Positions 17,801 to 62,592 of a stretch of DNA of 64,000 bases are shown piece by piece. A program made the translations under genes and the position numbers. Under the pieces are notes generated by a model. The model saw nothing but the letters and a program-made list of their open reading frames with translations, did not search any database and was not told the origin of the DNA. Within the stretch, counting starts at the first letter, position 1. Every line of letters begins with the position of its first letter. Location of the stretch: contig NC_087074.1 of the NCBI RefSeq assembly GCF_026151205.1, positions 12,443,182 to 12,507,181 on the forward strand, written 5' to 3'. This DNA comes from Bolinopsis microptera (Eukaryota > Ctenophora > Tentaculata > Lobata > Bolinopsidae).

Positions 17801-20800
17801 GAGAATATCACGCTCTAAAAGAAGGTATTGCGAACAAAACTGGATTTATAATAACATTTCTTAATGTCACGAACAAAACTTGACGGGGTAGTCCGTGTCG
17901 ACACAAATGTAATTATAAAACTTTCGGAATTTACAGCCAACAATATCATTCGATAAGCAAACATTATACTGATAATACGAAAACTTACCATGGCCCAAGT
18001 AATGTTATCCAAGGTAACACACAGCCATAGATTAGGGTACTTTGCCGACTGGAAAGCGTATCTCATGACTCCAAAACAGTGGTGAACTATCAGTTCGTCT
18101 GAAGGATCCCCGTTACCGTGGACTATACCGTTAGCCATTATAGCTAGGTATTTGCCTGTCACAGTACTTCGTAATCTGACTCTAGCTCGGTTCAGTAGTG
18201 CACCCTGAGAAGCGGAAAGTGACAGGTATTAGAGTATTAGAGGTATTAGAGGTATTAAGGTATTAGAGGTATTAGAGTATTAGAGGTATAAGATGTATTA
18301 GAGTGTGTATGTGATAGATTACACTTTACAAAGCATGGAAAATGGAAATAACCAATAAATTCTTCCACTTGTCAAATTTGAGATCAAAGTGTCTGGGTTT
18401 AACTGACAGCATGACGGAGCTGCTAGAGCTACTGGTGATTGTTACAGAGACGGTGAAAGTGAAAGTGAAATATTGTTTCGTACTCTAAGATTGTTTCTCT
18501 CAAAGTTCAGCTGAACTTCACCCTCTCCGACTGCTTTAGTGACAGCTTTCATTCCCATGTTCAACATGCCTGACAGCGAGCTCTTCGGTGCTTCTTGTTT
18601 TGCTACTTTTTCAACCTGAAATAGTGTAAGTAGTGTAAATTACAGTGTAAAATAACTCACTGATAAGAGCTGAAACATTCCTGAAATTGCTGTAGTTATT
18701 AGACTAGGTAATTATATTGAAATGAGTGTTTCCGTCTTAACACAGTGAGAATATTTCACCATCAAAACGTTAACAAATTTAGAATGTTAAAACTGGTTAT
18801 CATAGTTTCAAAAGTGGGCGATGTTTTGCCTATCACTGCTTTCCCAACAATAACTCCCATATTATCAACTGGTTTTTGCGGCGTTTACTATAATATGTGA
18901 AATATGTAAAATATGTATAATATATGTGAACCAACCCTTATTATTACAGATCTTCAATTCCATGAAAGTAACAAAGTAATAGCAAACACTGGCCCGAAGT
19001 GGCCCGTATCAAACTGAACTACAATCCACGGTCGCGTCATATATATTATGGAAGAGGCGATTTTAAAATTGACCCTTCTAGACATGACGTTATACTGGCT
19101 GGTTGCCATCACCATACAAATTATGGGATGAAATTTGATACAGCATTGCCAAATATCTAAAAATGGAAACTTCTGGAAGGTGACATATTCTTGCTGAAAG
19201 TATAACTTGGCACTGGATAGTACAATTAGTAAATAATATGGGCTGTCCTTGTTAAACTGTGAAGTGGGGGGAAGAAGAATCACTTCGCCTCCGATATTCG
19301 ACCCATATTATGGTGGTTCAGATAACTGTGGTTACCCCTAGTAACCCCCTGGTAACCCCCTTGTGAGTCAGGCCTGATAACGTCTGTGTACAGCTATACC
19401 AAGTAACAACCTATGCTCGCTACATTATAACATACATTATGATTTATAAAATTGCAAATCAGGTATTATCAACACAGTTTGTCAGTTCAATCTCATTTAT
19501 TTTATTCCCAATGACACTTTCGAACTGTGTGTCAAGAATTTTGAGCAAGTCGATGAAGACGATCGCGATGACTGCACCAACACAAATAAAGAAAGTTCCC
19601 TCCCATGATGGTGTTTGGAGTTGTGACAGTAGTTGTACCCCCCCCCCCCCCCACAGTAGTCGTACCTGTCATTCCATTGAAACATACCGTAGAGGATTAC
19701 TTTGTGCAAAGAATGTATTATGACCCGGATTATAATGACGTTTTATAGGTTTCCCTAGCAGAGCTAGACAGCTTTTATAGCAGAATTAGATATATCAAAA
19801 TTATTAATGCTTTTTACACAAACAATTCGACAAATATTTTGACTAGCATGACTTGAATGGACTTATGATAAAAAGGAGACTTTATGTTCAGTCAGTAGTT
19901 CGGACATTGGAGTAGAAGGGTTGTCTAATTTTTATGGAATTTTTAATTTGTTCATGGAAATGATTGCATGTTCGTAGCTGTAAAAATCAGAAATTTTGGG
20001 AAAAGCAAAAATATTCAATTCACAATATTTGAACTTACAACTCTGACAGCGAACATTCTCTGTAACGGCGTAGAGTTCCCATTTAGAGGTATGATATTGC
20101 CAACTCTGTCAAAAGCAAGGAATTTGCCAGGATCAGCGCAAGCCTCGAACTCTATAGCACCGCTATCCTCGTGATAGTATACTCTTAGTGCTGCCTGCTG
20201 CTCACTCGCTCTGTACTGGGAAGGAAGAGTGTTACAGATCCTGCTGAGGTATAAAATGTGTAAATTTATATTGCTTTAAGAAATGCGAATGAGTTGAGTT
20301 AGCTAGAATCCTAGGCATTTATAAGAATCAAATATGTAAGATTTAAGGTCCGGTTAGTAAATGGTATAAGAGATTTTCTAATTTTGGTATATAATGACCG
20401 ATATCAAGAATAAACAATAAAAATTAAACGCAAGTAATTATTCAGTATACATAACCATCATATCACTGAATTGACCACATTCATTAGTACCATTTAACCA
20501 TTCAGTATTTGATTTCATGAACATAAATAACGTGGCCACATGAAATCGAGAAAATATAAAACTTTGTTCTATTGCTCTGTTATCTTGTCATTTTTCTTCT
20601 GCGTTATTCTTTAATACGTTACTTTAGCAATGAGACTGTTAGCTTTTCTTGTAGTCCTAGTAGTGTGCTACGGCGGGAGAGCCGAGGAAGAATGCAGAGC
20701 CGAAGAAATTGAAAAAAAGAATGCAGTGGAGCTGATTCACTATCTAAAACGGTGTGTATCAGACGGGAGACTCGCCAAAAGAAGCAGTCTAGACTACCAG

Positions 20801-23800
20801 AAGAGATGTGGATCAAGTATCCAGGAGCTGATCGAGGAGAGAAGTGCTGACGAAGTCATCACCTTCGTGACACGTTGTGGGTCTGGTTTACTGGAGAAGA
20901 GAGAGGAGATTGCGATGGAAATTGTAAAGAGATGTGGTACAGGCTTAGAAGAGCTCCAAAGACGTAGCACAGACGAAGTGGTAGAAGTAATGAAGAGGTG
21001 TGGCAGTAGCTTGTTGGAGGAGAGGAGTGATGTGGAGGAGGAGCTGCAGAGACGATGTGGGACAGGGATCCAGGACCTGCTAAACAAGAGGAACCTGGGA
21101 GAGGCTCTAAATGTGCTGAAACGGTGCGGTGGGATCCAGAACAGGGTAGGAAGAGAGTAGGAGGAGGAGGAGCAATGGCGGAGTAGTTCTGGCGGGGAGA
21201 ACTGGGAAACAAACACTGGGTCTATGAACATTGTTTCTGATAACTCTCCAAGTTTAAAGATATATTCATTGTACATGAACTATCGAAGATGTTATTGATT
21301 AAACTTTTGTCGAAATTCTTTTCTTGTTACCGTGACCCTATTAATCAAGAGAAAAGATATTAAAGTACGATTAAGATTTACAATAACTGTGACACTGTTA
21401 ATTGAATTAAAATGTATTTATCTAATATGTTGTGGGCAAAAATATCAATTTAAGTTTGTTTAGGCGATTCAATATTATCCTTTCATCAATAAAATACAGT
21501 GATTTTATTTTGTTGGTCCTACCGAATTAACAGTATGTTGAAAGGGCAAAAGTGATGATTCTATATTATATATAATGTATATAATGAGTCGGGAAGATTA
21601 TGGTTTTAAACTTCAACTACCCATATTTAGTGTATATCCATCAGCGCACTGGTTTATTCTATGTGTCACATGACCACATGAAATAGAGGTGGTGTAAAAT
21701 GATAAACTCAACTCCACAGTACACCCCTGCTATTGCACATAATTGCTGTTTACTGTATTACACTTTGTCAATGAAGTACTGTATTTTGTTTGTTGCTGTA
21801 TTATCAGTATTTCACGGGCTGGTAGCTGCTGAGGAGGACTTGGAAAAAAGAGAAACCGAAGCGGAGATAGAAAAGAGATGCCATGGAGAATGGCACGGAG
21901 CACTGCTCAAGAAGCGGAGTTTGGGGGATATAGCTGAACTGAGTGTGATGCTGAAGAGATGCTTGATAGGGGGAGGTAGTGGTAAGCTTGAAAAGAGGGA
22001 CGATGTTAAAGTAAAGAAAAGGTGCGCTGGTTGGATCGAGACTCACATTCAAGGGGGAAAACCATGTTACGAGTAAGATGAGAAAGTATATTATAATTAA
22101 TATAGAGTCGGACAAACACAGGGTCAATGTTAATCTGCTAACTCCTTTAAAGAGATTCAAAATATCTTAGAATTATAATTATAATACATTATACATTATA
22201 CATTATACATTATACATTATACATTATACATTATACATTATACATTATACATTATACATTATACATTATATATATACTACAACTTATATACTACAACTTC
22301 GCAAGATTCCATTGATTAAGATTGTTTTCGAGTCCTTACCTTTAGTTGCCGTGACCTCATCAATCAACAGGAAAGACAATATACGATCAACATTAATTGC
22401 AAGAAGTATGGAATACGAATTGAAACTCTTGAATGTTGGATCGAAATTTTATCAATTCAAGTATATATAAGATGTAAGCATTTCAATTTGATCATTTTCG
22501 TCAAAAATATTATGATTCTATTTTGTTGGTTCTACCGTACTATGTTAAAAGGAAAGTTCAGTGATAATTCAAAATGGAATGGTTAAATAATGGCTGAATA
22601 AAACAGGACTAGTATATTACCCATCCCAATTGTGAGATTACTGAAAATGGAGCAGATTCTATCCAGATACATGAACTATAGAGTAATTTTCGTTTAAACA
22701 TTAAATTAACACTCTATGTGAATTAGGTTATGAGCTGCAGTGGCAAGCTTGTCTCTAACTAACATAATGATATCACTGTTTAGCAGTGTGATTAAATTAA
22801 TATCAACATTTTTAGTAAATTTGAGAGCTCTTTGATGAATCTTCTGTACGATTGAATTGATAGGCCTTTTGAAAGTCATCAGCAGTAAAAAAGCTTAAGT
22901 GTATACATTGTACATCAAAATAAAACGTACAATCAAATCTTGATAAAGTTATACCGACAAGCACAGATGTGTAGTGTATACAAATTTCAATGTGTCACAT
23001 GACCACATGAAAAATGAATGGTTGGAATGTAAAATGATAGATCACACTTAACCCGACCCCTGCTAGTGCAGTGCACATAATTGCTGTTTACTGTAGTACA
23101 CTTTGGACCGATGAAATACTGTATTTTGCTTGTTGCTGTATTATCAGTATTTCACGGGCTGGTAGTTGCTGAGGACTTGGAAAAAAGAGAAACTGAAGCG
23201 GAGATAGAAAAGAGATGCCATGGAGAATGGCACGGAGCGCTGCTCAAGAAGCGGAGTTTGGGGGATATAGCTGAACTGAGTGTGATGCTGAAGAGATGCT
23301 TGATAGGGGGAGGTAGTGGTAAGCTTGAAAAGAGGGACGATGTTAAAGTAAAGAAAAGGTGTCATGGAGCATTTGATGTTAAATGTGTGATCGGAGGGAC
23401 CCACGAGCAGTGATTTGATATTGAACTTTTAGAGGACCCCGACCCAGTGATAACTGATAAAAACGACCCTGTGAAAACTATGTACAGAATATCTAGTAAA
23501 TAGCAGAATAGCTGAAATTTCTGTGACCATTCTTTTAAAATTTTTCGGAATTTCGCTGAATTGCACAACTTTCGTCTTGGTAGATTCCAAACACAAGGAA
23601 ATTTTCCTTTTTGGTTGCTAATATATTCAAAGATGGGAGTACAATGTATTGGTTATGCCCCGCTTACTAGTTTAGCTCTATCTGGTCCCCTGCTACACGG
23701 CATGTAAACAAGGATTGGACAGTTAGAGGCGGTCAGTGTAGGCCATATACACTGTGCTTTCAGCTATACCTATTTATATAAATCTAAGACTATTATTTGG

Positions 23801-25560
23801 GAAATGCATTTTATCTTTTGTACCACATGTCATCATTTTGTTCCTTACAAACCCGATAGTGAAACCCTACGTGGAATCGTTTTGATAAAAGTACGATTAA
23901 CCTTTAAACACTTATTTTTTCGGAAATTGTAGAATATTGTACTAGTTGACTGAAGTAAATGAGTAATAAACAGACAGTATGTCTTTTAACCCATCTTCTT
24001 GTGCTTCAGAATCATTATTTCACTCAGAAATACAGAAATGTTATACGGTTACGTTTCAATATCTTAATTATTTAACAGATATTGTATTGAGGTTCTATAT
24101 TAGAAGTTCTAATGCGTAGTAAACAACATATCAATCACGGCATAATATAAGAATAATATAAGAATCATGTTCCATAGATCACCTATGTTTACGGCACCAC
24201 AAAAGGTTGCATGAAGGCCTGAAATGATTAACCTTACCCATTAACGAGTTATTTCAAGAGCTTAAACCATGGCCATTACCCAATCTGAAAAGATATTTAA
24301 CGGCTGATTCTGGCAGAATACTTACTAAGCACTGAAATATAGCCAAACTTTACTAAACTGACAATTGGTAATTCAAATAAACTTACCCCGTACAGATAGC
24401 CAGCATTAGCGCCAATAATATGTCCGGTTAGAGGACACTGTAACATCACTGCTGATCCCAACTGAAGATGAAAGATGTATCTTCAACCTTTTCATATCAG
24501 CATGTATAGTTTAATCAAATGGATAGTTTTTTTGAAGTCCGAGATACAGTCCATGATAATAAGTAGGCGCAGTTTATATCTCCGCCAAAAGCACATGAAA
24601 TCGAGATAAATTATTTTGCAATGTATACAGAGTTAATATATGCACTTATACAAATCACTTGGAATAATTTTGAAAGAGAATAACAAGCTCAAAAACGCTA
24701 CTGACGTATTTCTCCATAAAAAGCACAATAGCGTAGGAAGCTTTTGTCGAGGTGCCTCGAAAGTGATCTTAAATGATTCCCCGTTCAATTTTGGTCGAGG
24801 AACGCCAACTTAGTGCATAATCAAGCAAGTTATAGACATATTTCATACGTATCAAATTGGATGTGCTTTTGGCGGAGATATAACGTGTGCCTAATAAGTA
24901 ACACCATAACAGTATGCAAAACTGATTATGTTAAGAACACATTAAAAAGTGAAAATCAATACCTGAGAAACAACGAATTTATCTCCACAGTTGTAATTAT
25001 TTGCAGCATTTGCTCTGAGAGCACCTGTCGGCTCCATTAGTACAGCCTGATAGAAAATAAATAGAAAATAATAACAATAGGACATGTTCATACACAACTG
25101 CATTGGAGCCTGTAGAATCCCCTAATGACTAATTATTTCCAAATTAACTTTTTAATTGTTTACTTTACATCTGTTAGCTATGGGTAGGTATTATATATCT
25201 ATTGAATATTCAAATTATTCATGATAACATAAATATTTCAATTAAGCAAAACTTCAACACTAATATTGAGACAATCAAAAATGTTCTATTCTAGCATTGA
25301 ACCAACCTTAGAGGAGCCAAGGCTAACAATTTCCACTTTAGCACCATGTTTTAGAGGTGTTTTTCCGAATGGGGGAGTAGCAGTCTGAAACAAAAATGTG
25401 GTTATTCTTGACAAATAACATAATAAAATCATGCCAACATTACATTGAATATCCAATTGAGTTAATATATTATCAACAATACGAAGTTCATTCTATAAAG
25501 CGTTATACACAGCAATATTTCAACAGCATTACTTACTGGCACTTTCACAACTCTTGCCAT
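14885..25560 (-). CDS. Tandem beta-trefoil protein with Pro-rich tail, 10 exons
   Basis: The minus-strand exons are 25560-25537, 25384-25307, 25046-24963, 24461-24387, 20215-20039, 18615-18484, 18204-17989, 17618-17409, 15879-15732 and 15021-14885. The joined frame gives 426 residues. Residues ~20-146 form a first beta-trefoil-like module (VLMEPTGALRANAANNYN; KFLAFDRVGNIIPLNG). Residues 147-190 are a Lys/Ser/Gly linker. Residues ~191-332 form a second module (GKYLAIMANGIVHGNGD; DGRILLRRNTQISNG). Residues 333-426 are Pro/Ala-rich. There is no signal peptide, so it is probably cytosolic; actin or ligand binding would be inference from the fold. Exon 6 uses a weak donor (GTACGA), so that junction is the least sure. 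Exon 9 has about eight acceptor copies upstream and fourteen in-phase donors downstream. Intron 4 (~4.2 kb) hosts three opposite-strand peptide genes. Confidence 0.75.
15359..15747 (-). repeat. 27-bp minisatellite carrying 14 copies of a splice donor
   Basis: Fourteen near-identical 27-bp units. Read on the minus strand each contains GCTGCAG followed by GTAAATATAC, a good 5' splice site, in the same phase. Each unit encodes nine residues (GAAAGKYTI or GAAAGKYTV). The first unit supplies the end of exon 9 of the trefoil gene. Use of later donors would lengthen the protein by nine residues per unit without changing frame. Confidence 0.9.
15836..16406 (-). repeat. 71-bp minisatellite carrying 8 copies of a splice acceptor
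   Basis: Eight units of 69-72 bp. On the minus strand each ends an intron-like pyrimidine tract in CTACTTTCCCAG (CTTTTCCAG in one copy), followed by the first 42 bases of exon 9. Because the unit is not a multiple of three, starting the exon at a copy further upstream would run into a stop. The acceptor nearest the exon (15880) is therefore the productive one. Confidence 0.9.
18222..18300. repeat. Short tandem repeat (GTATTAGAG)n
   Basis: About eight imperfect copies of GTATTAGAG in the intron upstream of exon 7 of the tandem trefoil gene. Confidence 0.75.
20630..21160 (+). CDS. Secreted multi-peptide precursor with RCG repeats (copy 1)
   Basis: A single-exon ORF of 176 residues begins with a clear signal peptide (MRLLAFLVVLVVCYGGRA). 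The rest is an acidic spacer cut by many dibasic sites (KR, RR, KK). Each repeat starts Arg-Cys-Gly: six RCG starts occur, with alternating spacings of about 23 and 19 residues, e.g. KRCGSSIQEL, KRCGTGLEELQ, RRCGTGIQDLLN, KRCGGIQN. Between them lie Cys-free segments such as STDEVVEVM and NLGEALNVL. Cleavage at the dibasic sites would free short peptides with one N-terminal Cys, able to form disulphide dimers. This design is that of neuropeptide or other secreted peptide precursors; no known family is recognised. The gene lies opposite to, and inside intron 4 of, the trefoil gene. A TTTAG just before the ATG could be the acceptor of a 5' UTR intron. Confidence 0.75.
   Translation: MRLLAFLVVLVVCYGGRAEEECRAEEIEKKNAVELIHYLKRCVSDGRLAKRSSLDYQKRCGSSIQELIEERSADEVITFVTRCGSGLLEKREEIAMEIVKRCGTGLEELQRRSTDEVVEVMKRCGSSLLEERSDVEEELQRRCGTGIQDLLNKRNLGEALNVLKRCGGIQNRVGRE
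21771..22076 (+). CDS. Secreted Cys-peptide precursor (copy 2)
   Basis: The ATG at 21771 is preferred over upstream in-frame codons because it places a signal peptide (MKYCILFVAVLSVFHGLVAA) at the very N-terminus and matches copy 3. The product is 101 residues. After the signal come KR/KKR-delimited segments: an acidic spacer (ETEAEIEKR), CHGEWHGALL, SLGDIAELSVML, CLIGGGSGKLE, DDVKVK and a C-terminal segment beginning CAGWIETH. The LKRC junction after an 'SLG...ML' segment recalls the 'NLG...VL' segment of copy 1, so the three genes form one family. It is nearly identical to copy 3 until the last 20 residues. The function is unknown: hormone, neuropeptide or other secreted peptide. Confidence 0.75.
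   Translation: MKYCILFVAVLSVFHGLVAAEEDLEKRETEAEIEKRCHGEWHGALLKKRSLGDIAELSVMLKRCLIGGGSGKLEKRDDVKVKKRCAGWIETHIQGGKPCYE
22183..22272. repeat. 7-bp microsatellite (CATTATA)n
   Basis: About eleven to twelve perfect units of CATTATA, between peptide-precursor copies 2 and 3. Confidence 0.9.
23111..23413 (+). CDS. Secreted Cys-peptide precursor (copy 3)
   Basis: The ATG at 23111 gives 100 residues with the same signal peptide as copy 2 apart from a few changes. The spacer and the first two Cys segments (CHGEWHGALL, CLIGGGSGKLE) are the same as in copy 2. After the last KKR the sequence departs: CHGAFDVKCVIGGTHEQ here, against a Trp- and Pro-containing tail in copy 2. The end thus carries a second Cys not in the same place. 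The 5' flank repeats that of copy 2, including TGTCACATGACCACATGAAA at about 22992 and CACATAATTGCTGTTTACTG just before the ATG. It is a recent tandem duplicate, intact and probably expressed. Confidence 0.75.
   Translation: MKYCILLVAVLSVFHGLVVAEDLEKRETEAEIEKRCHGEWHGALLKKRSLGDIAELSVMLKRCLIGGGSGKLEKRDDVKVKKRCHGAFDVKCVIGGTHEQ
24566..24892. mobile_element. MITE with 8-bp target duplication
   Basis: A 327-bp element whose ends are inverted repeats of about 35 bases sharing TATATCTCCGCCAAAAGCAC. AATAAGTA flanks both sides (24558-24565 and 24893-24900). The 8-bp duplication suggests a hAT-type source. It fills most of the intron between exons 3 and 4 of the tandem trefoil gene. No ORF. Confidence 0.85.
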
Positions 25561-30483: not shown

Positions 30484-30615
30484 GATAGGGTGCAGAGACA
30501 TGTCCTGGAGACATTGGAGACATTGGAGACACAGCTTTTGGAGACATTGGAGACATTGGGGACATTGGAGACATTGGAGACAAAGCTTTTGGAGACATTG
30601 GAGACATTGGAGACA
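30484..30615 (+). repeat. 9-bp array GACATTGGA (left)
   Basis: Tandem GACATTGGA units with interspersed ACAGCTTTT. Its mirror image stands at the right end of the purine-rich satellite (33447-33665). Confidence 0.85.
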
Positions 30616-33440
30616 CTGGAGACGTAGATGTATGATTGGAGAAGGAGGAGGATCTAGGAGGAGGATGACCCAGGAGGAGGACTCAGGAGGAGAAGGAGGA
30701 GGATGAGGACTCAGGAAGAGGACTGAGGAGGACTGAGAAGGAGGAGGACTGAGGAGTACTGAGGAGGATGGCTGAGGAGGATGGCTGAGGAGGATGACTG
30801 AGAGGGAGGAGGAGGAGGAGGAAGAGGAAAAGGACTGAGGAGGAGGAGTAGGACTGAGGAGGAGAAGGAGGAGGACCTAGGAGGAGGACCCAGAAGGAGG
30901 ACTCAGGAGGAGGAGGAGGAGAACTCAGGAAAAGGACTGAGAAGGAGGAGGACTCAGGAGTACTGAAGAGGATGACTGAGGAGGAGGAGGAGAAGGACTG
31001 AGGAGGAGAAGGAGAAGGTGGAGGAACTAGGAGGAGGATGAACCAGGAGGAGGACTCAGGAGGAAGAGGAGGAGGACTCAGGAGGAGGACTTAGGAGGAA
31101 TGAAAAGGAGGAGGACTGAGGAGAACTGAGGAGGAGGAGGAGGACTGAATAGGAGTAGGGGGACTGGGGAGGACTGAGGAGGAGGAGGACTGACGAGAAG
31201 GATGAGGAGGAGGACTGAGGACTGAGGACTGAGGAGGAAGAGGAGGAGGATGAAGAGGAGGAAGAGGACCCAGGAAGAGGAGGACTGAAGAGGACGATGA
31301 GGATGAGGACTGAGGAGGAGGAGGAGGACTGAGGAGGATGGCTGAGGAGGATGACTGAGAGGGAGGAGGAGGAGGACTGAGGAGGAGGAGGAGAAGGACT
31401 GAGGAGGAGAAGGAGGAGGACCTAGGAGGAGAAGGACCCAGGAGGAGGACCCAGGAGGAGGACTCAGGAGAAGGACTCAGGAAAACTGAAGAGTGAATAG
31501 GAGGAGGAGGGGGAGGACCTAGGAGGAGGAGGATCGAGAAGGAGGACTGAGGAGGAGGAGGAGGAGGAGAACTCAGGAAGAGGACTGAGGAGGACTGAGA
31601 AGGAGGAGGACTGAGAAGGAGGAGGACTGAGGAGCACTGAAGAGGATGACTGAGGAGGAGAGGAGAAGAAGGACTGAGGAGGAGAAGGATAAGGTGGAGG
31701 AACTAGGAGGAGGATGAACCAGGAGGAGGACTCAGGAGGAAGAGGGGGAGGACTCAGGAGGAGGACTTAGGAGGAATGAGAAGGAGGAGGACTGAGGAGA
31801 ACTGGGGAGGAGGAGGAGGACTGAATAGGAGGAGGAGGGGGACTGGGGAGGACTGAGGAGGAGGAGGACTGACGAGAAGGATGAGGAGGAGGACTGAGAA
31901 CTGAGGACTGAGGAGGAAGAGGAGGATGAAGAGGAGGAAGAGGACCCAGGAGGAGGAGGACTGAAGAGGACGATGAGGATGAGGACTGAGGAGGAGGAGG
32001 ACTGAGGAGGATGGCTGAGGAGGATGACTGAGAGGGAGGAGGAGGAGGACTGAGGAGGAGGAGGAGAAGGACTGAGGAGGAAAAGGAGGAGGACCTAGGA
32101 GGAGGAGGACCCAGGAGGAGGACTCAGGAGGAGGACTCATGAGAAGGACTCAGGAAAACTGAGGAGTGAATAGGAGGAGGAGGGGGAGGACCTAGGAGGA
32201 GGAGGACCCAGAAGGAGGACTGAGGAGGAGGAGAACTCAGGAAGAGGACTGAGGAGGACTGAGAAGGAGGAGGACTGAGGAGCACTGAAGAGGATGACTG
32301 AGGAGGAGGAGGAGGAGAATGACTGAGGAGGAGAAGGAGAAGGTGGAGGAACTAGGAGGAGGATGAACCAGGAGGAGGACTCAGGAGGAAGAAGGGGAGG
32401 ACTCAGGAGGAGGACTTAGGAGGAATGAGCAGGAGGAGGACTGAGGAGAACTGAGGAGGAGGAGGAGGAGGACTGAATAGGAGGAGGAGGACTGACGAGA
32501 AGGATGAGGAGGAGGACTGAGGACTGAGGAGGAAGAGGAGGAGGATGAAGAGGAGGAAGAGGACCCAGGAGGAGAAGGACTGAAGAGGAGGATGAGGATG
32601 AGGACTGAGGAGGAGGAGAAGGACTGAGGAGGACTGATGAGTATGGCTGAGGAGGATGACTGAGAGGGAGGAGGAGGACTGAGGAGGAGGAGGAGAAGGA
32701 CTGAGGAGGAGAAGGAGGAGGACCTAGGAGGAGGAGGACCCAGGAGGAGGACTCAGGAGGAAGACTCAGGAGGAGGAGGAGGACTCAGGAGGAAGACTCA
32801 GGAAAACTGAGGAGGAGGAGGAGGAGTGAATGGGAGGAGGAGGGGGACTGGGGAGGACTGAGGAAGAGGAGGACTAAGGAAAAGGATGAGGAGGAGGACT
32901 GAGGAGGAGGATGAGGACTGAGGAGGAGGACTGAGGAGTACTGATGAGGAAGGCTGAGGAGGACGGCTGAGGAGGATGGCTGAGGAGGATGACTGAGGAG
33001 GATGACTGAGAGGGAGGAGGAGGAGGAGGAGGAGGACTGAGGAGGAGGAGGAGGAGGAGAAGGAGGAGGACCTAGGAGGAGGAGGACTCAGGAAGAGGAG
33101 GACTCAGGAGGAGGACTCAGGAAGAGGACTCAGGAGGAGGACTGAGAAGGAGGAGGACTGAGGAGAACTGAGGAGGAGGAGGATGAGGACTGAATAGGAG
33201 GGGGGACTGGGGGAGGACTGAGGAGGAGGGGGACTTGGGGAGGACTGAGGAGGAGGAGGAAGACTGACGAGAAAGATGAGGAGGAGGACTGATGATTGAG
33301 GAGGAAGAGGAGGAGGATGAAGAGGAGTAGGAGGACTCAGGAGGAGGAGGACTCAGGAGGAGGAGGACTCAGGAGGAGGAGGAGAACAACTGAGGAGGAC
33401 TGAGGAGGAAGAGGAGGAGGAGGAGGAGGAGGAGGAGGAG
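30616..33440 (+). repeat. 2.8-kb purine-rich satellite
   Basis: Almost pure A/G on the plus strand, built from GAGGAGGACTGAGGAGGAGG-type words, with higher-order units of several hundred bases repeated (for example around 31020-31500 and 31690-32170). The only frequent pyrimidines are the CT of ACTGAGG and ACTCAGG. Long ORFs within it are low-complexity artefacts. Such a tract can adopt triplex (H-DNA) structure. Confidence 0.95.
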
Positions 33441-33446
33441 GAGGAG

Positions 33447-33665
33447 GCTGTGTCTCCAATGTCTCCAAAAGCGGTGTCTCTAATGTCCCCAATGTCCCAA
33501 ATGTCCCGAATGTCTCCAATGTCTCCAAAAGCTGTGTCTCCAATGTCTCCAAAAGCTGTGTCTCTAATGTCCCAAATGTCTCCAATGTCTCCAAAAGCTG
33601 TGTCTCCAATGTCTCCAATGTCTTTGTCTTTTTCGAAAAGATAAGGTGCGGGAGACATTGGAGAC
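33447..33665 (-). repeat. 9-bp array TCTCCAATG (right, inverted)
   Basis: Same array as at 30484 but in reverse orientation, with AAAAGCTGTG spacers, closing the purine-rich satellite. Confidence 0.85.
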
Positions 33666-41164: not shown

Positions 41165-44100
41165 TTAGGCGTTGTCTTTGCATATCTTAGCAAACTGTCG
41201 CTGATTAAATAATATTATGATACGTCCCAGAGGAGCTATCAGAGCCTGAAAATAAAATAAATTTGTTAAAAATAAAATAAATTTCTGACGTAAAGTAAGT
41301 AAGGTTGTAAAAATAACTTACTTTGTGGGATCAATAACTTACTTTGTGGGATCAATAACTTACTTTGTGAGGACCGTTACGTTGTTCAAATCTCAGATAT
41401 TTGAGCGTATTAGCCAGCGGTAGACACGATACAAGATGTGAATACAAAATGTCAACATATTTGCATCTGTTGCAATGTATTATATTCGCCAACTCCCTAA
41501 TAAACTAGTACAGTTGATGATTTCATTAGGATAAAATATAAAATTGCAGAAAAGTAACGGTTATTTGTCATGGTGGTCTGTTTTTCAACAGACTACGCCC
41601 AGCTAATATTTCAACCAGACAAAAGTTTTGTTTGAGCAAGGGCTGTTCATTGTACAGGAATGTTAACAAATCATGTAGTTTGTCATTAATGTTTGTCTCC
41701 ATATGTTCATCGCCAGATGGTGGCATACCATATTACTATCATACATTTAGTATTGGTAGTAAGCAATTAGCAATCATTGAGAGAAATATACAACTTTGTA
41801 ACTTGGTAACGCTAAGTATTGTGCGGCACAATATTTACAGTAGTGGTCACTTGGGGGGTACCAATGGCATAAATGGCATAATGGAGAATTGGCCAAACAA
41901 AATTTCCATTTATGCCATGAAATTTCTATGCCATTTGATGAATTTTATGCCATTTGTCTCCATTCTATGCCATTCGAAATATGAAATTTTAAAACTTTGA
42001 ACTGAGAATTTAATTTAACGAATTGTCTGCACCCCACTAGTACTGTCCACCTTTATCTCTATTTATTGTACTACAACATCTATTTTCACCCATTAAATTC
42101 CTCAAAATATCCCTAGCAATGGGCATTATTGATTATAATTACGTTCAATGTATATCAATATGATATGATGATTTGGTTGATTGTGGACAAGTGACCGGGC
42201 AGTATGGCATAGTACACGCTACACACCGTATAACAGAGAGGACAGTCGACTGAATGCTCCCAGTCAATCGGATATCCAAATTAACAGTGGAAAACTGTAA
42301 CATTACCAACTCGATTAAAATATTATTTGTTAATGATGTGTACAGATGTATCGTGTCGGGACCGTGTTCATGTAGAATGTTTTGAAATTTAAACATTTTC
42401 ACAAGATTGATAATGATCTGTGTTTCGAATGGGTAGCCTCTTAAAAGTAATATTCATTGATATCTCGATGAACCTGTATATTAGTATTACATAACAGTTC
42501 ACCAAATGACCTGAAATACTTGCTTCCTATTATACAAAATTATGATGACATAATATATTGCTTAAATATCTTCATATTCACTGCTGCATGGCAACATAGC
42601 ACTCCTTAATTATTTTTCTATAATAACGTTAATCTAGTATAATCATTGTAGGATTTTGAACATCTCACAATTTGGGCTGTAGGACTGTAGAGCGGGGGAC
42701 TGTATGGCGTACTTGGTCAAAAGTAGGACCCTAGAGCGGAGTCAAATCGCCAGGGTAGGAATCTAGAGCGGAACCCCCTTACCGGAACCATACTATAAGG
42801 ACCCTAGAGTGGAGTCAAATCGCCAGGATAGGACTCTAGAGCGGAACTCCCTTACCGAAACCATACTATGAGGACTCTAGAGCGGTACCCACATGTAAAT
42901 TTTGGAGCGGTTAGAAATTTGAGATCGGACTGTAGAGTGGACTTGGTCGGAAGATTGAAATCAGATTAGATACAACTCGTGATTGATTATTATAATAGTG
43001 AGATTAGAATAATTCATGGAGTTGTTGAAGCAGAAAATTGTCCTAGATTATTTATATTATACATCATATCATATTGTAATTTTTAGATACGTTAGACAAT
43101 TGTTCGGTATAAACTTCTTCCATTTGACTGAAATATCCTGATGCTACTCTAAAATGCAAAAAGATTCTTTGATAAAGAGGTATAATTATGAACTGGTCGA
43201 TGTGATTTCGCTAAGCGAAATACCGACCAAGTACGTGCACTCAAGCAGATCATTTAGGAATGAGGATCTCATCGCGTGACACTTTAGCACCTACTAAGGG
43301 TATCTCATGTTCAGTCTAGTGACAGGGTATGTTCCAGATCAGATCCCATCGCATAGCGGTTCTTGTTAGTGATTTCGATAGTGCAGTATAAATGTCACAG
43401 AGAATTTAGTTTAGTATATCACATTCGATTCCTACTCCTCTTCACAACTATCTACAATATGCTGAGTAACAGTTATTACTTAACTCTTCCTGAGAAGGCC
43501 GTCTTCATCCGGGGACGAACAGCTGAGATGGGTACGGGAGAACGGACTGAAGAAGGACTACGACGAAGGAATTAACGACCCCCTTACCAATTCCTGGACT
43601 TCAGGTCCTGTTCGAGTGTGGATACGTAGACTTATGCACTATGCAGCTTGCCTTTCTCCCAGTGGACGATGTTCTCCCTTCTTTCATGGAGCTCCTAGAT
43701 CTTATACCCTCCCACCTTGGCCTCGACGACTTCCTTAACTACTTCATGACGAATTGGGTACAGGGAGTTTCCACCGCTCGTAGCACCAAACCTGCCCGCT
43801 TTCCTCCGCAATCCTGGAACCTCGTCGACCGGACTACCTGCAACTTCAACTACGCAGAGGCCTTTAACAGAAAGTTTGCAGCAATGTTGGGACACTCTTA
43901 CCCAACTATCTGGACCTTTCTTCAAGCCGTCTACATAGAACAGTCCACTACAGATGAGATGATGCTCAAGGAGAGTTACGGGGATGCTCCTCCTGCAAAA
44001 CGAGCCCGTCAGCGTACCAAGGATAGCCGACTGGCACATTTAGTAAAAGTCTACGACGATCATGACATTGTCTCACTCTCCCACCTTGACATGTTGAGGA

Positions 44101-47100
44101 ACGTGATGGTCGAGGAACTGAGTGAACTATTTTAAGATATTTGATTCGCAGTATTAATGTATAATAAGTTGTATCAATTCTATCATCATTATGTGACGAC
44201 TATTATTAATCATTGATTAAAAAACATAGCTCAATCTTCAAAACTAACTTTACTCTCAAATTTCTAACCGCTCTAAAATTTGCATGTGGGTACCGCTCTA
44301 GAGTCTTCATAGTATGGGTCCGGTAAGGGAGTTCCGCTCTAGAATCCTACCTTGGCGATTTGACTCCGCTCTAGGGTCCTCATAGTATGGGTCCGGTAAG
44401 GGGGTTCCGCTCTAGAGTCCTACCCTGGCGATTTGACTCCGCTCTAGGGTCCTACTTTCGAATTTGCTTTTCTTGAATAGTCAAATGTTTGGTATATGTT
44501 TGATATAATACATTTCTATTTTCTTTATTTGTCATATGAATCTTTAAAGATCATTCCAAGCGTTATAAAGCATGAAACATGTCTCTTATTCAAGTACTAA
44601 TAATATTTGCGAATTTAAAGTCATCCTAAAGGTCAAATATGAAGACCTAAATTCATGGCATAAATTGGCATAAATGGAGAATTGGCCAAACAAAATTTCC
44701 ATTTATGCCATGAAATTTCTATGCCATTTGATGAATTTTATGCCATTTGTCTCCATTCTATGCCATTGGTACCCCCCCGGTCACTTATAATGACTTTAGT
44801 GATAGTGGAGAGGTAGTCACGTGTAAGACTACACGTGTTCCTCAAATTACTTAAAGTTTTAATACTTTCAACACTACTATATAACAAATAATTTGAGCTA
44901 GCAGAATGGTTTTAAGAGGGCATTAATGAAATGTACTATGAGCTGGTCCCAAGTCCATACGCCATTATATTCTTTGTAATTTTCAATAACCCTGTCTAGT
45001 CATTGACTACTGATTACACGTGACTTACATTCAAATATCACGTGACTAACATTTAAATATTACACGTGACTTACAAGTTTTTGGTACTTCGCAGGCCGTT
45101 AAAGAAAACATACGAGCGATGAGGTGACGTGTTGTGGCTACCATTGTTAAATTAGACAGCAGCTGATCAGTGTTATATTCTGTAATCTCATCACAGGAAT
45201 GCTGTATTACTCTTGATCTAGATGGAATGTATGTAGCTACCACCTCATTTAAGTGGACCTACGGCAGGCAGCACTGGATAGTGGATATGACTATACGGAT
45301 AGATTTAACTAAATGATTTGATAACTCTGAATACAGTAGGTGTCCTTAATGGAAGTCTTCATATCAATTTCATAATAGTGAAAATCAGGCTGCTAGAAAG
45401 TAGAAATTTTGTAAATATTTCGGTCGGTTCTTTTAATGTACATATATTGTATAGTGTATGATACATATAACATATTGATAAAGATGTTTTTAAAGACAGA
45501 TTTGATAACAGACCGCAAAGGATATTATTATACATGTATTTATATGGGTTTGCAACTGTAATCACCCACAAAGTTTGTCTAATTAAAATCTAACTAAAAT
45601 AAATATTTTATATAAGATTTGCTGGTACCTGTAAAATACCATGTATCATAGCGTGGACTGGCTCTGTGCCCGCACAGGTCTGAGACAACAACCACCCTTC
45701 AATACCCGTACTTATACTGTATTTACCTGGGGTAATTAGTAATTAGTTAATTAGCTCAATTAGATAAGAAAAACATTGTTGGTATTGAATATATAATTAC
45801 AACTCAAAAATATATGGAAATATGGACAAATAAAAGCCTTTATTTCTTTATCTGTGTATGTGATGTTTTATACCACAAACAAATGTAACCGAATTTGCCA
45901 TGCACAGAATTGTAAATCCTTTTCTGTCCTTTACTTCTACACGGTGAGATGGTTAATAAATCAGCTGTCCGAATGTGTAAACATTTGTCGGTACACTGAG
46001 GAGGAGTTCATTACGCTATTATATTCATAAGCTTTGAGTGGACTATTCAATCTTACGCTGAGAGGAATTGATGCTGAGAGGAATTAATGTTTAACAGCTT
46101 TATAAATTTGATTCACGGTTTGATGATTTCGAATTTTAAGACTAGTAGTGTAATACTAGCTCGTCTATTTAGAATTGTAATGTTGATTAGTTTAAGTGTA
46201 ATTAAAATTCCGCTGGTAAGTTAAAGTTAAACTCGACGTGTGAAAACAACTTATAAGAACTGTGATACATATAAACTTATAGGAACTGTGAAAATAAACA
46301 CTGATATTTCATAATTTAATAGGCTTGAAATTTCACGTTGCTCACTAAGCTTTCAATAAAATGTTCAGTGGAATTAATGTATAATAATGTATTCATAATG
46401 TACGAAGATATCCAGAGAAATTATATCATACATTTACGTGATTGTATTAATTAACTGTATTTCCTCCAACACTATCTAATAAATGTATTCAATAATCGAT
46501 TAATTTGTAATTTGAACAAAAACTGCTTTTTAATCAACTCCTTATTTGAAGTCATTTATTCCTTGCGTGAGATCACGTTAATCAACGGATGTAATATGTG
46601 GCAGTATTCAATAACGTTTGGGCGGAAGGGGGAGCCTTTTGACACGTGACTTTGTGCATCATCTCCCCACTAGTTTCGATTCCATTAATCCTATACTGAT
46701 AAGTCTTCAATACTTAATGTTGAAGAATTCTTGCCTTCTGGAAATATTGAACGTTCCTACACCAAGCTGGGAGTCGAGTTACAGCGACCGGAAGTTCAAT
46801 TTTCCGTCAAATTAAATTTGTACACGTAACCAAAAACACGAGATAAATTTCCACACTTATCTCGATGAATAAAGCATTAGAGTGGCTTCCTTATTATATG
46901 CTGACGTGAACAGAACCCTAGTCTACTAAGGATATAACTCAGCAGCCAAAAAGTGAAAGTGAAACAAAGGTGAAAGTGAAACAAAAGTGAAAGTGAAACA
47001 AAAGTGAAAGTGAAACAAAAGTGAAAGTCAACGAACCGTTTTCAACACCACAGATAAGATCTTCTGCAACTCTGTCCGGTGGAAATAATCCTGATGTCTC

Positions 47101-53385: not shown

Positions 53386-55197
53386 TTAAAATTCAGTGTG
53401 TTCCCAGGAGTCTCCACCCCATTCCAGCTCTTCAGTTTCAACACTGTCCATCATATCCAACACTTCCTTTTCTCTGCCTTTGTATGTAGTGCCACTCAAT
53501 TTCTTGACCGTCAACAAATCTCCATCAATTGGATTAAAAGATGCGTATTCAGCAACTGCACCGAGGATAAACTGAGCAAATTGAAGGGCTCCAAAGATTG
53601 GTGTGAAATAATCACTTTCAGGTAGATTCTTATCTTCAGTTATGTCAGAAGGCCTTTGGTGGATAGAATGCTTCTCAGGACCCAGTTGGTATACGTAGTA
53701 GCTGGAGTTTAACAGAGCCACAGCTCTTGCTAACCAACCATTGGTATCACCTAACATACTCTTACTGACGAAAAATGACAAACTCTTGGCTACTGTGACA
53801 TTGATAAGTCCTAAAATAGGGTTTTTAGGCTGTTTTGTGTTTCTAATGCCCAAGAAAATCCCATAATCTGGAAGCATTGCAATTGACTCATCAATTTTCT
53901 TATATCCTGCAACATATTCATACTTTTCAAATGTTGAAACATCCACACCATGAATAACTGAAAACATCAAGTCAAGGTTAGCCTTTTTGCTTATGGATGG
54001 AAAATCACGGTAACCTTCTTTGGACGTGACAAATGGAAGAAACCTCTTTACAAGATCATCAACTTTAATGGTTTGGATACCAGCTTTAGGGTTAATACCG
54101 GAACACCATTTTCCAGGATTAGCAATGACAACATCGACTTTCTGACTCGGATAAGAATTAGGTAAGAAAGAATCAAGAGCATTCTTTATCTCAACTGGCC
54201 CTTTATTTAAGACATATTCAGCCAGGGAGAATGAAGCAACAATTCTATCTGAGTTGAACCTGAAGAAGCCTGTGCGATAGCTTGACAGCGCCCCCATAAG
54301 AACTTTATCCTCATCAACCTCTCTGGGGAGTTTGACTATGGGAGAAACCTTTTCAAGTAATTCATTAAACAATCTGTAAACATGAAGGCTTGACTTGGCA
54401 ATTTCCTTTTCCGATGCATCATCATCGCTTAGCCAGAATTCAATTCCGTCTATTTCAGAAATGATTTCCTCTAATGCATCACTCAAATCTTCATCATCTC
54501 TACCTTGAAGAACCCTTTGAATACCAAGCAAATATACAGCAACATCATCAAGCACTTTCAGGATAACTTTTTGGTTAGACAGCTTACCAGTAAATATATT
54601 TAAATCAACCATCTTTGAAGATCCTTTAAAACTTCTTTTATTTGTTTCAATAAAGGCCGTTTCAGCTCTACCACTTTCTGTTTTCAAGAAGTCATTTAAT
54701 GGTTTGATGACACAAATAACTTTTGTGAATGAAATTTCTTGTTGAACCCAGCCTCTGTAGCAATATTCAGGTCTTAGCCCAATACTCATCTCCGTGAAGA
54801 CTGTTCCATGATAGTACAATTTTCCCATAAATCCCATGTTAAGTTTTATATGTGCTGGCCATGCTTGAACCATGCAGAGACCATCTAACCACACCTGATC
54901 AAAAAATTCTAGAGCAGCTCGACATATTTCTTCTGCTCTGTTGCTTATCTTCCATGTCAGTTCTGTCTCACTGTCATACCAGTCAACTCTGTCATGACCC
55001 CATGTATAGGAGCAAATCCCAATTTTGGTAAAGTATTCATCTGTAAATTCATGCTTAACTGATTGAACAGAAAGGTCCCCATTGTCACTCAAAGAAACTA
55101 GTCTTAACGGCTTAATTTTACCACTAGTAATTGCATCGTCAAAACTCATGTCACAGGGGGCTACTGCTGCTGCTTGTTTAGTACATCGAGATCCCAT
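53386..55197 (-). CDS. HET-like domain protein, single exon, possible N-myristoylation
   Basis: One uninterrupted ORF of 603 residues. It begins MGSRCTKQ: Gly2 and Thr6 fit N-myristoylation and Cys5 could be palmitoylated, so membrane attachment is plausible. Residues ~60-160 carry the ordered motifs of the HET (heterokaryon-incompatibility) domain: SYTWGHD, VWLDGLCMVQ, a 'MGKLYYHGTVF' segment and YRGWVQQEIS. In fungi HET domains trigger cell death on non-self recognition. They are distantly TIR-like. The remaining ~440 residues are not recognised; they are mixed alpha/beta with an acidic segment near 240-280 and an acidic C-terminus. Neighbouring genes have 2-13 exons, so an intronless coding region suggests retroposition or gene transfer. 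A TTTTACTGCAG just before the ATG could be a 5' UTR acceptor. Confidence 0.65.
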   Translation of the reverse strand: MGSRCTKQAAAVAPCDMSFDDAITSGKIKPLRLVSLSDNGDLSVQSVKHEFTDEYFTKIGICSYTWGHDRVDWYDSETELTWKISNRAEEICRAALEFFDQVWLDGLCMVQAWPAHIKLNMGFMGKLYYHGTVFTEMSIGLRPEYCYRGWVQQEISFTKVICVIKPLNDFLKTESGRAETAFIETNKRSFKGSSKMVDLNIFTGKLSNQKVILKVLDDVAVYLLGIQRVLQGRDDEDLSDALEEIISEIDGIEFWLSDDDASEKEIAKSSLHVYRLFNELLEKVSPIVKLPREVDEDKVLMGALSSYRTGFFRFNSDRIVASFSLAEYVLNKGPVEIKNALDSFLPNSYPSQKVDVVIANPGKWCSGINPKAGIQTIKVDDLVKRFLPFVTSKEGYRDFPSISKKANLDLMFSVIHGVDVSTFEKYEYVAGYKKIDESIAMLPDYGIFLGIRNTKQPKNPILGLINVTVAKSLSFFVSKSMLGDTNGWLARAVALLNSSYYVYQLGPEKHSIHQRPSDITEDKNLPESDYFTPIFGALQFAQFILGAVAEYASFNPIDGDLLTVKKLSGTTYKGREKEVLDMMDSVETEELEWGGDSWEHTEF

Positions 55198-55317
55198 GAA
55201 GCTGCAGTAAAATTAAGTCAGTAAAACACAAACCACAATGCAAAATAATAAAATTAAAACTAAAAATAAAAGTTGGAAAGCAGTTCTTAAAGGTTTTTGA
55301 AGATTTAATATTAAATT

Positions 55318-56843: not shown

Positions 56844-57677
56844 TGTTAGAATCTTAATTCTATTTGTAGCTTGTTTTTGTACTTACATATTACTAACCCT
56901 GTATCTCACTTTAGCAAAGGTTTAGTTCCAGTGATTGTATATACAGTGTTGGGGTAAAGGGACTCCAGAAGGCAGACAAGGCTCGACTCCAGACTCTAGT
57001 TGAAGTAACAGAAGAGAGAGGAGTGTCCAGTGTTTAGTTGACTCCAGACTCTAGCGAAGCAGAAGGGAGAGGAGTGACGTTGTCGACTCCAGACTCTAGC
57101 GTAGCAGAAGGGAGAGGAGTGACGTTGTTTTAGTGATCCCACAGATTCCAGTCGACAGATACTATCTGTGTTCTGTGACGTGGAAAGAGTGGTAAGTAGT
57201 TTATAGTTATAGTTTAGTAGTTTAGTCTAGGAGTTCCCGCTTCCTCTTTCACTTTCATTTATAGTTTCACGTGGATTACCTTTCACTTTACTCACGGTAG
57301 TTTTCCCCCAGGGTTTTGTTTTATAGTTATCAGTTCCAGTTTTACTTGAAGTCCTCATCATTCAGAAGTCCCTCATATAGTAAGAAGAACATCATCATCA
57401 GGAGTAGTAGTTTTAATTTAATAGTAGTTTAATCTAATAGTAAAAAAGACATTGTTTAGTTTAGTATTGAAATGTGTTTTAACTATTAGTCAGAGCAGAG
57501 TAGTGTGAGTTACTGAGTCACACCATATCAATCATTCACTATTTAAGAGAGTACATTGTAGAGTAACAAGGTTACTTTTGACACAAGATTTGTATAACCT
57601 CTTTATTCATCTAATTTGTATTTATAATAATTGAGTATTATTTGTTATTTAATTAACCCAAGAACAGGGTTCCAACA
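56844..57677 (+). repeat. 5' LTR
   Basis: 834 bases, TG...CA bounded, preceded by target duplication AGAAC and followed by the primer-binding site. Contains three ~46-bp tandem units at about 56990-57130. Confidence 0.95.
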
Positions 57678-57789
57678 GTGGTAGCAGGAAGAACTACGTT
57701 ACACCGGACCGCATTTATTTTTTGTATATTTTAACTAACACTTAACACCTAACACCCGATTTCAGCTTTCAGATTCTTCTACATCCATC

Positions 57790-61758: not shown

Positions 61759-62592
61759 TGTTAGAATCTTAATTCTATTTGTAGCTTGTTTTTGTACTTA
61801 CATATTACTAACCCTGTATCTCACTTTAGCAAAGGTTTAGTTCCAGTGATTGTATATACAGTGTTGGGGTAAAGGGACTCCAGAAGGCAGACAAGGCTCG
61901 ACTCCAGACTCTAGTTGAAGTAACAGAAGAGAGAGGAGTGTCCAGTGTTTAGTTGACTCCAGACTCTAGCGAAGCAGAAGGGAGAGGAGTGACGTTGTCG
62001 ACTCCAGACTCTAGCGTAGCAGAAGGGAGAGGAGTGACGTTGTTTTAGTGATCCCACAGATTCCAGTCGACAGATACTATCTGTGTTCTGTGACGTGGAA
62101 AGAGTGGTAAGTAGTTTATAGTTATAGTTTAGTAGTTTAGTCTAGGAGTTCCCGCTTCCTCTTTCACTTTCATTTATAGTTTCACGTGGATTACCTTTCA
62201 CTTTACTCACGGTAGTTTTCCCCCAGGGTTTTGTTTTATAGTTATCAGTTCCAGTTTTACTTGAAGTCCTCATCATTCAGAAGTCCCTCATATAGTAAGA
62301 AGAACATCATCATCAGGAGTAGTAGTTTTAATTTAATAGTAGTTTAATCTAATAGTAAAAAAGACATTGTTTAGTTTAGTATTGAAATGTGTTTTAACTA
62401 TTAGTCAGAGCAGAGTAGTGTGAGTTACTGAGTCACACCATATCAATCATTCACTATTTAAGAGAGTACATTGTAGAGTAACAAGGTTACTTTTGACACA
62501 AGATTTGTATAACCTCTTTATTCATCTAATTTGTATTTATAATAATTGAGTATTATTTGTTATTTAATTAACCCAAGAACAGGGTTCCAACA
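61759..62592 (+). repeat. 3' LTR
   Basis: 834 bases, apparently identical to the 5' LTR, preceded by a polypurine tract and followed by AGAAC. Confidence 0.95.

What the first reader, a model, noticed from the sequence alone, without database searches (positions are those of the whole stretch)
20630..23413. Three secreted-peptide precursor genes nested antisense in one intron
Seen: three intact plus-strand ORFs with signal peptides and many dibasic sites lie in intron 4 of a minus-strand trefoil gene. Copies 2 and 3 are near-identical. Copy 1 shares the LKRC junction and similar 3' flank words (for example TGTTGGTCCTACCG at about 21512 and TGTTGGTTCTACCG at about 22524). Inference: a local, expanding family of peptide hormones, neuropeptides or other secreted peptides, of a type I do not recognise.
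Basis: partly seen in the sequence, partly recalled or inferred. Interest (0 to 1): 0.8.

Follow-up and report, generated by a model that had tools for sequence, protein, structure and literature searches.

The report
Comb-jelly family of secreted peptide precursors
A comb-jelly genome carries a small family of genes for secreted proteins that look built to be cut into many short peptides, about half of them beginning with a cysteine; three of these genes sit together, on the opposite strand, inside one intron of another gene.

Summary
Three single-exon plus-strand genes (20630-21160, 21771-22076, 23111-23413) lie in a 4171-nt intron (20216-24386) of a minus-strand gene with beta-trefoil (not P-type trefoil) similarity. 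The genome is a ctenophore and fits Bolinopsis microptera. A fourth family member lies on another chromosome. Evidence that they are genes: the mature parts of copy 3 and the fourth member show strong purifying selection (24 synonymous changes on 33 sites, 24 nonsynonymous on 126), and a 13-nt box (one position A or G) lies 97-131 nt before all four start codons. Each protein has a signal-like start, then alternating segments divided by basic pairs; 14 of 18 mature cysteines directly follow a dibasic pair. Best reading: precursors cut at dibasic sites into short, mostly acidic peptides, about half of them cysteine-first, that pair through disulfides. Expression, processing and function are untested; signalling, defence and an uncut helical protein all remain open. 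No Gly precedes a dibasic site, unlike the amidated ctenophore neuropeptides found by mass spectrometry. An odd detail: copies 2 and 3 differ at 2 of 191 positions up to the last KKR-C site, then have unrelated 17-residue, two-cysteine tails.

The parts
20630..21160 (+). gene copy 1, 176 aa: signal-like start MRLLAFLVVLVVCYGGRA, then alternating Cys-first and Cys-free segments divided by KR/RR/ER
21771..22076 (+). gene copy 2, 101 aa; last peptide CAGWIETHIQGGKPCYE
23111..23413 (+). gene copy 3, 100 aa; last peptide CHGAFDVKCVIGGTHEQ
20533..20545 (+). shared box TGGCCACATGAAA, 97 nt before the ATG of copy 1
   Evidence: 3 in the window, 0.01 expected
21671..21683 (+). shared box TGACCACATGAAA, 100 nt before the ATG of copy 2
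23000..23012 (+). shared box TGACCACATGAAA, 111 nt before the ATG of copy 3
21657..22024 (+). block shared with 22986-23361; similarity stops at the last KKR-C site
22986..23361 (+). block shared with 21657-22024
21286..21524 (+). 3' flank of copy 1 with two matches collinear to 22303-22537 (3' flank of copy 2)
22303..22537 (+). 3' flank of copy 2 collinear with 21286-21524
20216..24386 (-). intron (4171 nt) of the minus-strand beta-trefoil-like gene that holds all three genes
   Evidence: read by eye
24387..24461 (-). host exon 4 (LGSAVMLQCPLTGHIIGANAGYLYG)
   Evidence: by eye
20039..20215 (-). host exon 5 (YRASEQQAALRVYYHEDSG...MFAVRV)

Best explanation
The three ORFs and a fourth on another chromosome are real single-exon genes for secreted precursors. 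SHOWN from sequence: a hydrophobic signal-like start, no second strongly hydrophobic stretch, alternating segments divided by basic pairs, a cysteine placed directly after many of them, an even number of mature cysteines in each of the four proteins (8, 4, 4, 2), purifying selection between copy 3 and the fourth member, and a common upstream box. INFERRED: the precursor enters the secretory route, proprotein convertases cut at KR/RR, a carboxypeptidase trims the basic ends, and short peptides result: cysteine-first ones (e.g. CHGEWHGALL, CGTGLEELQ) and cysteine-free ones (e.g. SLGDIAELSVML, NLGEALNVL). Peptides with one N-terminal cysteine would pair through disulfides with one another; the two-cysteine tails of copies 2 and 3 could close as rings. 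Most likely role: extracellular peptide signalling (about two to one over a defence or prey-directed role), with the tandem genes giving a shared core and different last peptides.
For:: copy 3 vs member 4, mature part, pS 0.72 (24 of 33.3 sites), pN 0.19 (24 of 125.7); Fisher P 1.2e-8; five of copy 1's six internal units differ mainly at synonymous sites (pS 0.87, pN 0.36; pairs pooled, not independent); 14 of 18 mature Cys (copies 2 and 3 not independent) directly follow [KR][KR]; permutation P at most 3.5e-4 in each gene; in nine Cys-to-Cys units (tails and N-terminal segments left out; the units that copies 2 and 3 share counted once) the site before Cys is dibasic in 8 of 9, the mid-unit site in 7 of 9, and its Arg is there in 9 of 9; box TGRCCACATGAAA three times in the window, one before each ORF, 0.01 expected (pattern chosen after seeing the copies); member 4 has it 131 nt before its ATG; of 28 box matches in the genome 4 are this family, and 0 of the other 24 (all fetched) has a [KR][KR]C ORF of 30 aa or more starting 40-260 nt downstream; hydropathy peak 3.1-3.6 in the first 25 residues, at most 1.4 after residue 22, in 4 of 4; proprotein-convertase P domain, 8 matches over the cut-off. 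PMC9525235 section 6: basic sites are used for peptide processing in Bolinopsis mikado.
Against: No transcript, peptide or expression data. Two of nine mid-unit sites (EER) and one of nine Cys sites (VTRC) are not dibasic. No Gly before any dibasic site, so no amidation of the usual kind. The codon score of the four ORFs (0.16-0.25) is above the non-coding windows (maximum 0.12; the same stretches made the background), but known genes used for training score 0.07-0.28, and it does not single out the right frame: copies 1 and 3 and member 4 score higher in another frame. The signal part of copy 3 vs member 4 shows little constraint (pS 0.27, pN 0.18), and copies 2 and 3 alone are not decisive (3 synonymous, 2 nonsynonymous; P 0.06). 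Selection on copy 1 rests only on its internal units. A helix-like hydrophobic pattern with Gly after Cys would also suit an uncut helical protein. AlphaFold gave mean pLDDT 46-48, which does not discriminate.
Confidence: 0.58

Rival explanations
1. Secreted but uncut structural or adhesive protein: helices of about 17-20 residues, each ending in Cys-Gly, cross-linked through disulfides (for example part of a mucus, egg coat or colloblast secretion). The basic pairs are then only charged helix surface.
For: Periodic hydrophobic residues and Gly after Cys in copy 1 units; even cysteine counts; weak matches to designed helical repeat proteins (best E=0.009); AlphaFold draws long helices, at low confidence. 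PMC6278862 (passages): colloblast and tentacle candidate genes are enriched for signal peptides, and ctenophore-specific genes are over-represented among the colloblast candidates.
Against: Cys-to-Cys length varies from 19 to 28, unusual for a repeat solenoid; a basic pair is kept while K and R are swapped (EKR in copy 3, ERR in member 4); no confident fold.
Confidence: 0.2
2. Processed peptides used in defence or against prey rather than for signalling.
For: Tandem duplication and complete replacement of the last peptide between near-identical copies is a pattern often linked with defence or venom genes (recalled). PMC6278862 (passages) proposes toxin-secreting tentacle cells in ctenophores.
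Against: 27 of 31 predicted peptides have a net negative charge, range -5 to +1, unlike classical cationic antimicrobial peptides; the conserved core is under purifying, not diversifying, selection; no Pfam family above its cut-off for the three window proteins.
Confidence: 0.2
3. Not genes: chance open frames or decayed repeats in an intron.
For: ORFs of 100 aa appear in 67 of 500 shuffles of the intron; codon score is not frame-specific; the fourth copy ends early, at a TAG where copy 3 has the Lys of its EKR site.
Against: Selection between copy 3 and member 4, shared upstream box in 4 of 4, motif permutation tests.
Confidence: 0.04

Closest known systems
Ctenophore amidated neuropeptide precursors (NPWa, VWYa, FGLa, WTGa and others; Hayakawa et al. 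2022, PMC9525235)
   Same: Secreted precursors with basic cleavage sites, in the same group of animals; an NPWa-like exon is present in this genome (weak tblastn hit, E=0.068; read).
   Different: Those were identified with a focus on amidated C-termini; here no Gly precedes a dibasic site and Cys-first segments recur. Their precursor sequences could not be compared, apart from one NPWa peptide.
Cys-first cyclic peptide hormones (calcitonin/CGRP, endothelin, sarafotoxins) (recalled)
   Same: Dibasic cut directly before an N-terminal Cys; two-Cys last peptides of copies 2 and 3.
   Different: Most Cys-first segments here have one Cys and cannot form a ring alone; no Pfam match to these families.
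Dimeric one-cysteine secreted peptides such as halocidin or dimeric ant-venom peptides (recalled)
   Same: Short peptides with a single Cys that could form disulfide dimers.
   Different: Those are cationic (recalled); these are mostly acidic, and several come from one precursor.
Designed or natural helical repeat proteins
   Same: Leu/Glu/Arg-rich helix-like units; weak phmmer hits of copy 1.
   Different: Variable unit length, no confident fold, and no hit at E<=1 with the four-member profile.

Membership tests
secreted multi-peptide (prohormone-type) precursor | N-terminal signal peptide and no other membrane span | tested here: met
   Hydropathy only, no trained predictor: peak 3.1-3.6 in residues 1-25, at most 1.4 after residue 22, in 4 of 4 proteins
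secreted multi-peptide (prohormone-type) precursor | repeated related segments divided by dibasic sites | tested here: met
   Nine Cys-to-Cys units, site before Cys dibasic in 8 of 9, mid-unit site in 7 of 9; permutation tests
secreted multi-peptide (prohormone-type) precursor | actual cleavage and release of the peptides | not testable with these tools
   No peptidome reachable; supplementary files not available
ctenophore amidated neuropeptides | Gly directly before the basic cleavage site (C-terminal amidation) | tested here: not met
   No Gly directly precedes a [KR][KR] pair in the four proteins (sequences, read by eye); Gly precedes a single Arg only at DGRL and VGRE in mature copy 1
ctenophore amidated neuropeptides | expression in neurons | not testable with these tools
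   No expression data
calcitonin/endothelin-like cyclic peptide hormones | family sequence similarity | tested here: not met
   No Pfam family above its cut-off for copies 1-3 (member 4 not scanned against Pfam); best was Baculo_LEF5_C at 20.8 bits against 24, E=3e-4, taken as compositional
cationic antimicrobial peptides | net positive charge of the mature peptide | tested here: not met
   Net -5 to +1 over 31 predicted peptides, 27 negative
folded helical repeat protein | regular repeat and confident fold | tested here: inconclusive
   Unit length 19-28; pLDDT 46-48 with 1 or 4 sequences, too shallow to decide

The most novel reading that the evidence does not exclude
A ctenophore-specific, non-amidated peptide system in which one precursor yields many one-cysteine peptides that assemble into combinatorial disulfide-linked dimers, and in which duplicated genes keep a common core but exchange the last, two-cysteine peptide as a cassette exactly at a cleavage site.
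Probability: 0.15. Interest if true: 0.75.

Novelty: new member of a known kind. Interest (0 to 1): 0.47.

Why it matters
Ctenophores are central to the question of whether nervous systems arose once or more than once, and their peptide repertoire is a main line of evidence. The one mass-spectrometric survey I could read had a special focus on short amidated peptides (PMC9525235 section 6) and could pass over non-amidated, disulfide-linked ones such as these. If they are processed and expressed in neurons, they add a second chemical class to the comb-jelly repertoire; if in gland cells, they give entry to ctenophore defence or prey-capture chemistry. Either way the prediction is directly checkable against existing transcript and peptide data.

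Tried and rejected
Other family members. tblastn of copy 1 gave itself (2e-107) and 11 further rows at E 0.006-0.95; all 11 lie in six loci that I fetched, and by eye all are tandem-repeat arrays, open in two or more frames in five of six. Copy 3 and member 4 as queries found only copies 2, 3 and member 4; DNA searches with copies 1 and 3 and flanks added nothing. These counts are lower bounds. A 17-base form of the box with one mismatch gave 7 places: copies 2 and 3, member 4 and four others, reversed control 2. The 13-base box led to no further member (0 of 24 other sites).

Foreign origin. One pattern-and-tblastn scan each: copy 3 in the prokaryote genome collection (71 pattern matches, none confirmed) and copy 1 in viral contigs (8 pattern matches, none confirmed). 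Pfam (copies 1-3), NCBIfam (all four) and PDB gave only sub-threshold or no matches.

Organism. Sponge and cnidarian were considered first and dropped: 18 innexin matches, four of them full-length in one open frame; an iGluR whose best PDB match is Mnemiopsis ML032222a, although two other iGluRs matched kainate receptors named as the vertebrate types best; an NPWa-like exon (E=0.068 by search); and assembly figures. The 13 contig lengths seen sum by hand to 258.1 of 264.65 Mb (97.5%), largest 26.2 Mb, N50 20.8 Mb if these are the longest; printed for B. microptera are 265 Mb, 26.2 Mb and 20.8 Mb (PMC11797021 Table 1) and 97.23% in 13 scaffolds (PMC10232365). The number of pieces differs (232 here, 346 there). 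No COX1 match in the assembly.

Literature. Ten searches of the held library showed no paper on such a family in their listings, but the two main lists of predicted ctenophore precursors that I know of (Sachkova 2021, Moroz 2014) are not held and supplements could not be opened, so prior prediction of these genes cannot be excluded. Seen: PMC9525235 outline, passages and section 6; passages only of PMC10232365, PMC11797021, PMC6278862; the rest as listings.
Full report
WHAT IS THERE. The three ORFs are present as described, each with its own ATG and stop in one exon, all on the plus strand, within a 4171-nt intron (20216-24386) of a minus-strand gene whose exons I read by eye. The host exons show beta-trefoil similarity: FGF for 17818-18228 and HA-17 for 20018-20275, both below Pfam's cut-offs. 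Exons 4 and 5 join in phase 0 with GT and AG at the intron ends.

WHICH ORGANISM. The genome holds 264,652,675 bases in 232 contigs. One ionotropic glutamate receptor has the Mnemiopsis receptor ML032222a as its best PDB match, while two others I tried match kainate receptors named as the vertebrate types best. Innexin gives 18 matches, four of them full-length in one open frame. An exon encodes SSPGSDIKLAPGGGNPWGRK (weak search hit, E=0.068; read), close to the Bolinopsis mikado NPWamide peptide IGSDIKLVPGAGGNPWa. The 13 contig lengths seen give, by hand, a largest piece of 26.2 Mb and, if they are the longest, N50 20.8 Mb, equal to the figures printed for Bolinopsis microptera (PMC11797021 Table 1); the number of pieces differs (232 against 346). 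I take it as that species or a very close one.

FAMILY. A fourth member lies on contig C2 (L003:1501-1731). It matches the first 74 residues of copy 3 at 66% and ends at a TAG where copy 3 has the Lys of its EKR site. Copy 1 is more distant: BLASTP E=2e-5 and collinear 3' flank matches with copy 2. No further members were found by protein, DNA or box searches, each of which is a lower bound.

ARE THEY GENES? The best evidence is the comparison of copy 3 with member 4 over the mature part: 24 synonymous changes on 33.3 sites and 24 nonsynonymous on 125.7 (Fisher P 1.2e-8). The signal part shows little difference (pS 0.27, pN 0.18). Copies 2 and 3 are too alike for a firm answer (3 synonymous, 2 nonsynonymous up to the last KKR; P 0.06). 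In copy 1, five of its six internal units, compared pairwise and pooled (not independent), give pS 0.87 and pN 0.36. The word TGRCCACATGAAA occurs three times in the 64-kb window, once before each ORF at 97, 100 and 111 nt, with 0.01 expected (the word was chosen after seeing the copies); member 4 has it 131 nt before its ATG. Genome-wide it occurs 28 times against 11 for the reversed control, so by itself it is not specific to this family. Against: ORF length alone is weak (67 of 500 shuffles reach 100 aa; 1 of 500 reaches 176 aa), and the codon score, though above the non-coding windows, does not favour the right frame in three of the four.

ARCHITECTURE. After the signal-like start, segments alternate: a cysteine-first one (CGSS..., CGTG..., CHGEWHGALL..., CLIGG...) and a cysteine-free one (STDEVVEVM, NLGEALNVL, SLGDIAELSVML), closed by a basic pair in most cases. 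NLGEALNVLKRC in copy 1 and SLGDIAELSVMLKRC in copies 2 and 3 occupy the same place in this scheme (sequences). Of 18 mature cysteines in four proteins, 14 directly follow [KR][KR] (copies 2 and 3 are near-identical and not independent). Cutting at every basic pair gives 31 predicted peptides in all, 14 of them Cys-first and 27 with net negative charge (counted). Each mature protein has an even number of cysteines (8, 4, 4, 2).

TAIL EXCHANGE. Copies 2 and 3 differ at 2 of 191 positions (21834-22024 / 23171-23361). From the last base of the next Cys codon to the stop they agree at 18 of 52 positions, and the 100 nt from that point align no better than shuffles (278 of 300 shuffles score as high or higher). 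Both tails are 17 residues long with two cysteines. A recombination or gene-conversion edge explains the sharp boundary most simply; that it falls exactly at the KKR-C site may be chance or may reflect what selection tolerates.

MECHANISM. I favour secreted precursors cut at basic pairs into short peptides that pair through disulfides (0.58). The genome has convertase P domains (8 matches), and a relative is reported to use basic sites in peptide processing (PMC9525235 section 6). An uncut helical secreted protein (0.2) and a defence or prey-directed role of the cut peptides (0.2) are the serious rivals; the latter shares the processing step, so these odds are not strictly exclusive. AlphaFold did not discriminate (mean pLDDT 47.5 with four sequences for copy 3, 45.9 with one for copy 1).

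NOVELTY. No Pfam (copies 1-3), NCBIfam (all four) or PDB family fits, and ten searches of the held papers showed none in their listings. Two key lists of predicted ctenophore precursors could not be read, so these genes may already sit unnamed in one. I file the family as a new member of a known kind (secreted multi-peptide precursors), with unusual Cys-first units. Nested genes in introns are themselves common: an abstract listed (PMC3786989) gives about 6% of Drosophila genes as intronic.

Noticed in passing
22024/23361 (boundary between copies 2 and 3): Near-identity stops abruptly at the last KKR-C site; the two tails are unrelated in sequence but equal in length (17 aa) and cysteine count (2).
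   Followed up: partly
L003:1501-1731 (G000 C2:12698357): Fourth family member, closed by a TAG at the place of the EKR Lys of copy 3; later sequence resembling the third unit lies out of frame behind it, by eye.
   Followed up: yes
30506-33623: 2.8-kb GGA-rich array flanked by TGGAGACAT repeats on one side and TGTCTCCAA repeats, nearly their reverse complement, on the other; possibly a mobile element or satellite.
   Followed up: no
57040-57128 and 61955-62043: Tandem repeats with the same consensus about 4.9 kb apart, in stretches with the same translation, around a 721-codon open frame (57739-59901): looks like an LTR retroelement.
   Followed up: no
42725-42885 and 44293-44453: 73-nt tandem repeats that look like each other's reverse complement (by eye) around an open frame at 43551-44132, possibly a transposon.
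   Followed up: no
53389-55212 (minus): Long open frame (608 codons) with a weak HET-domain match (E=0.014, below Pfam's cut-off).
   Followed up: no
L017 and L026 (G000 C2:15172312, C5:11395982): The box lies in the same context at both places, ahead of the same zinc-finger-like frame: a duplicated or mobile sequence.
   Followed up: no
G000 C1:4254005 and 4378223; C7:6754013 and 6935049: Innexin frames in pairs with equal scores, recent duplicates or uncollapsed haplotypes.
   Followed up: no
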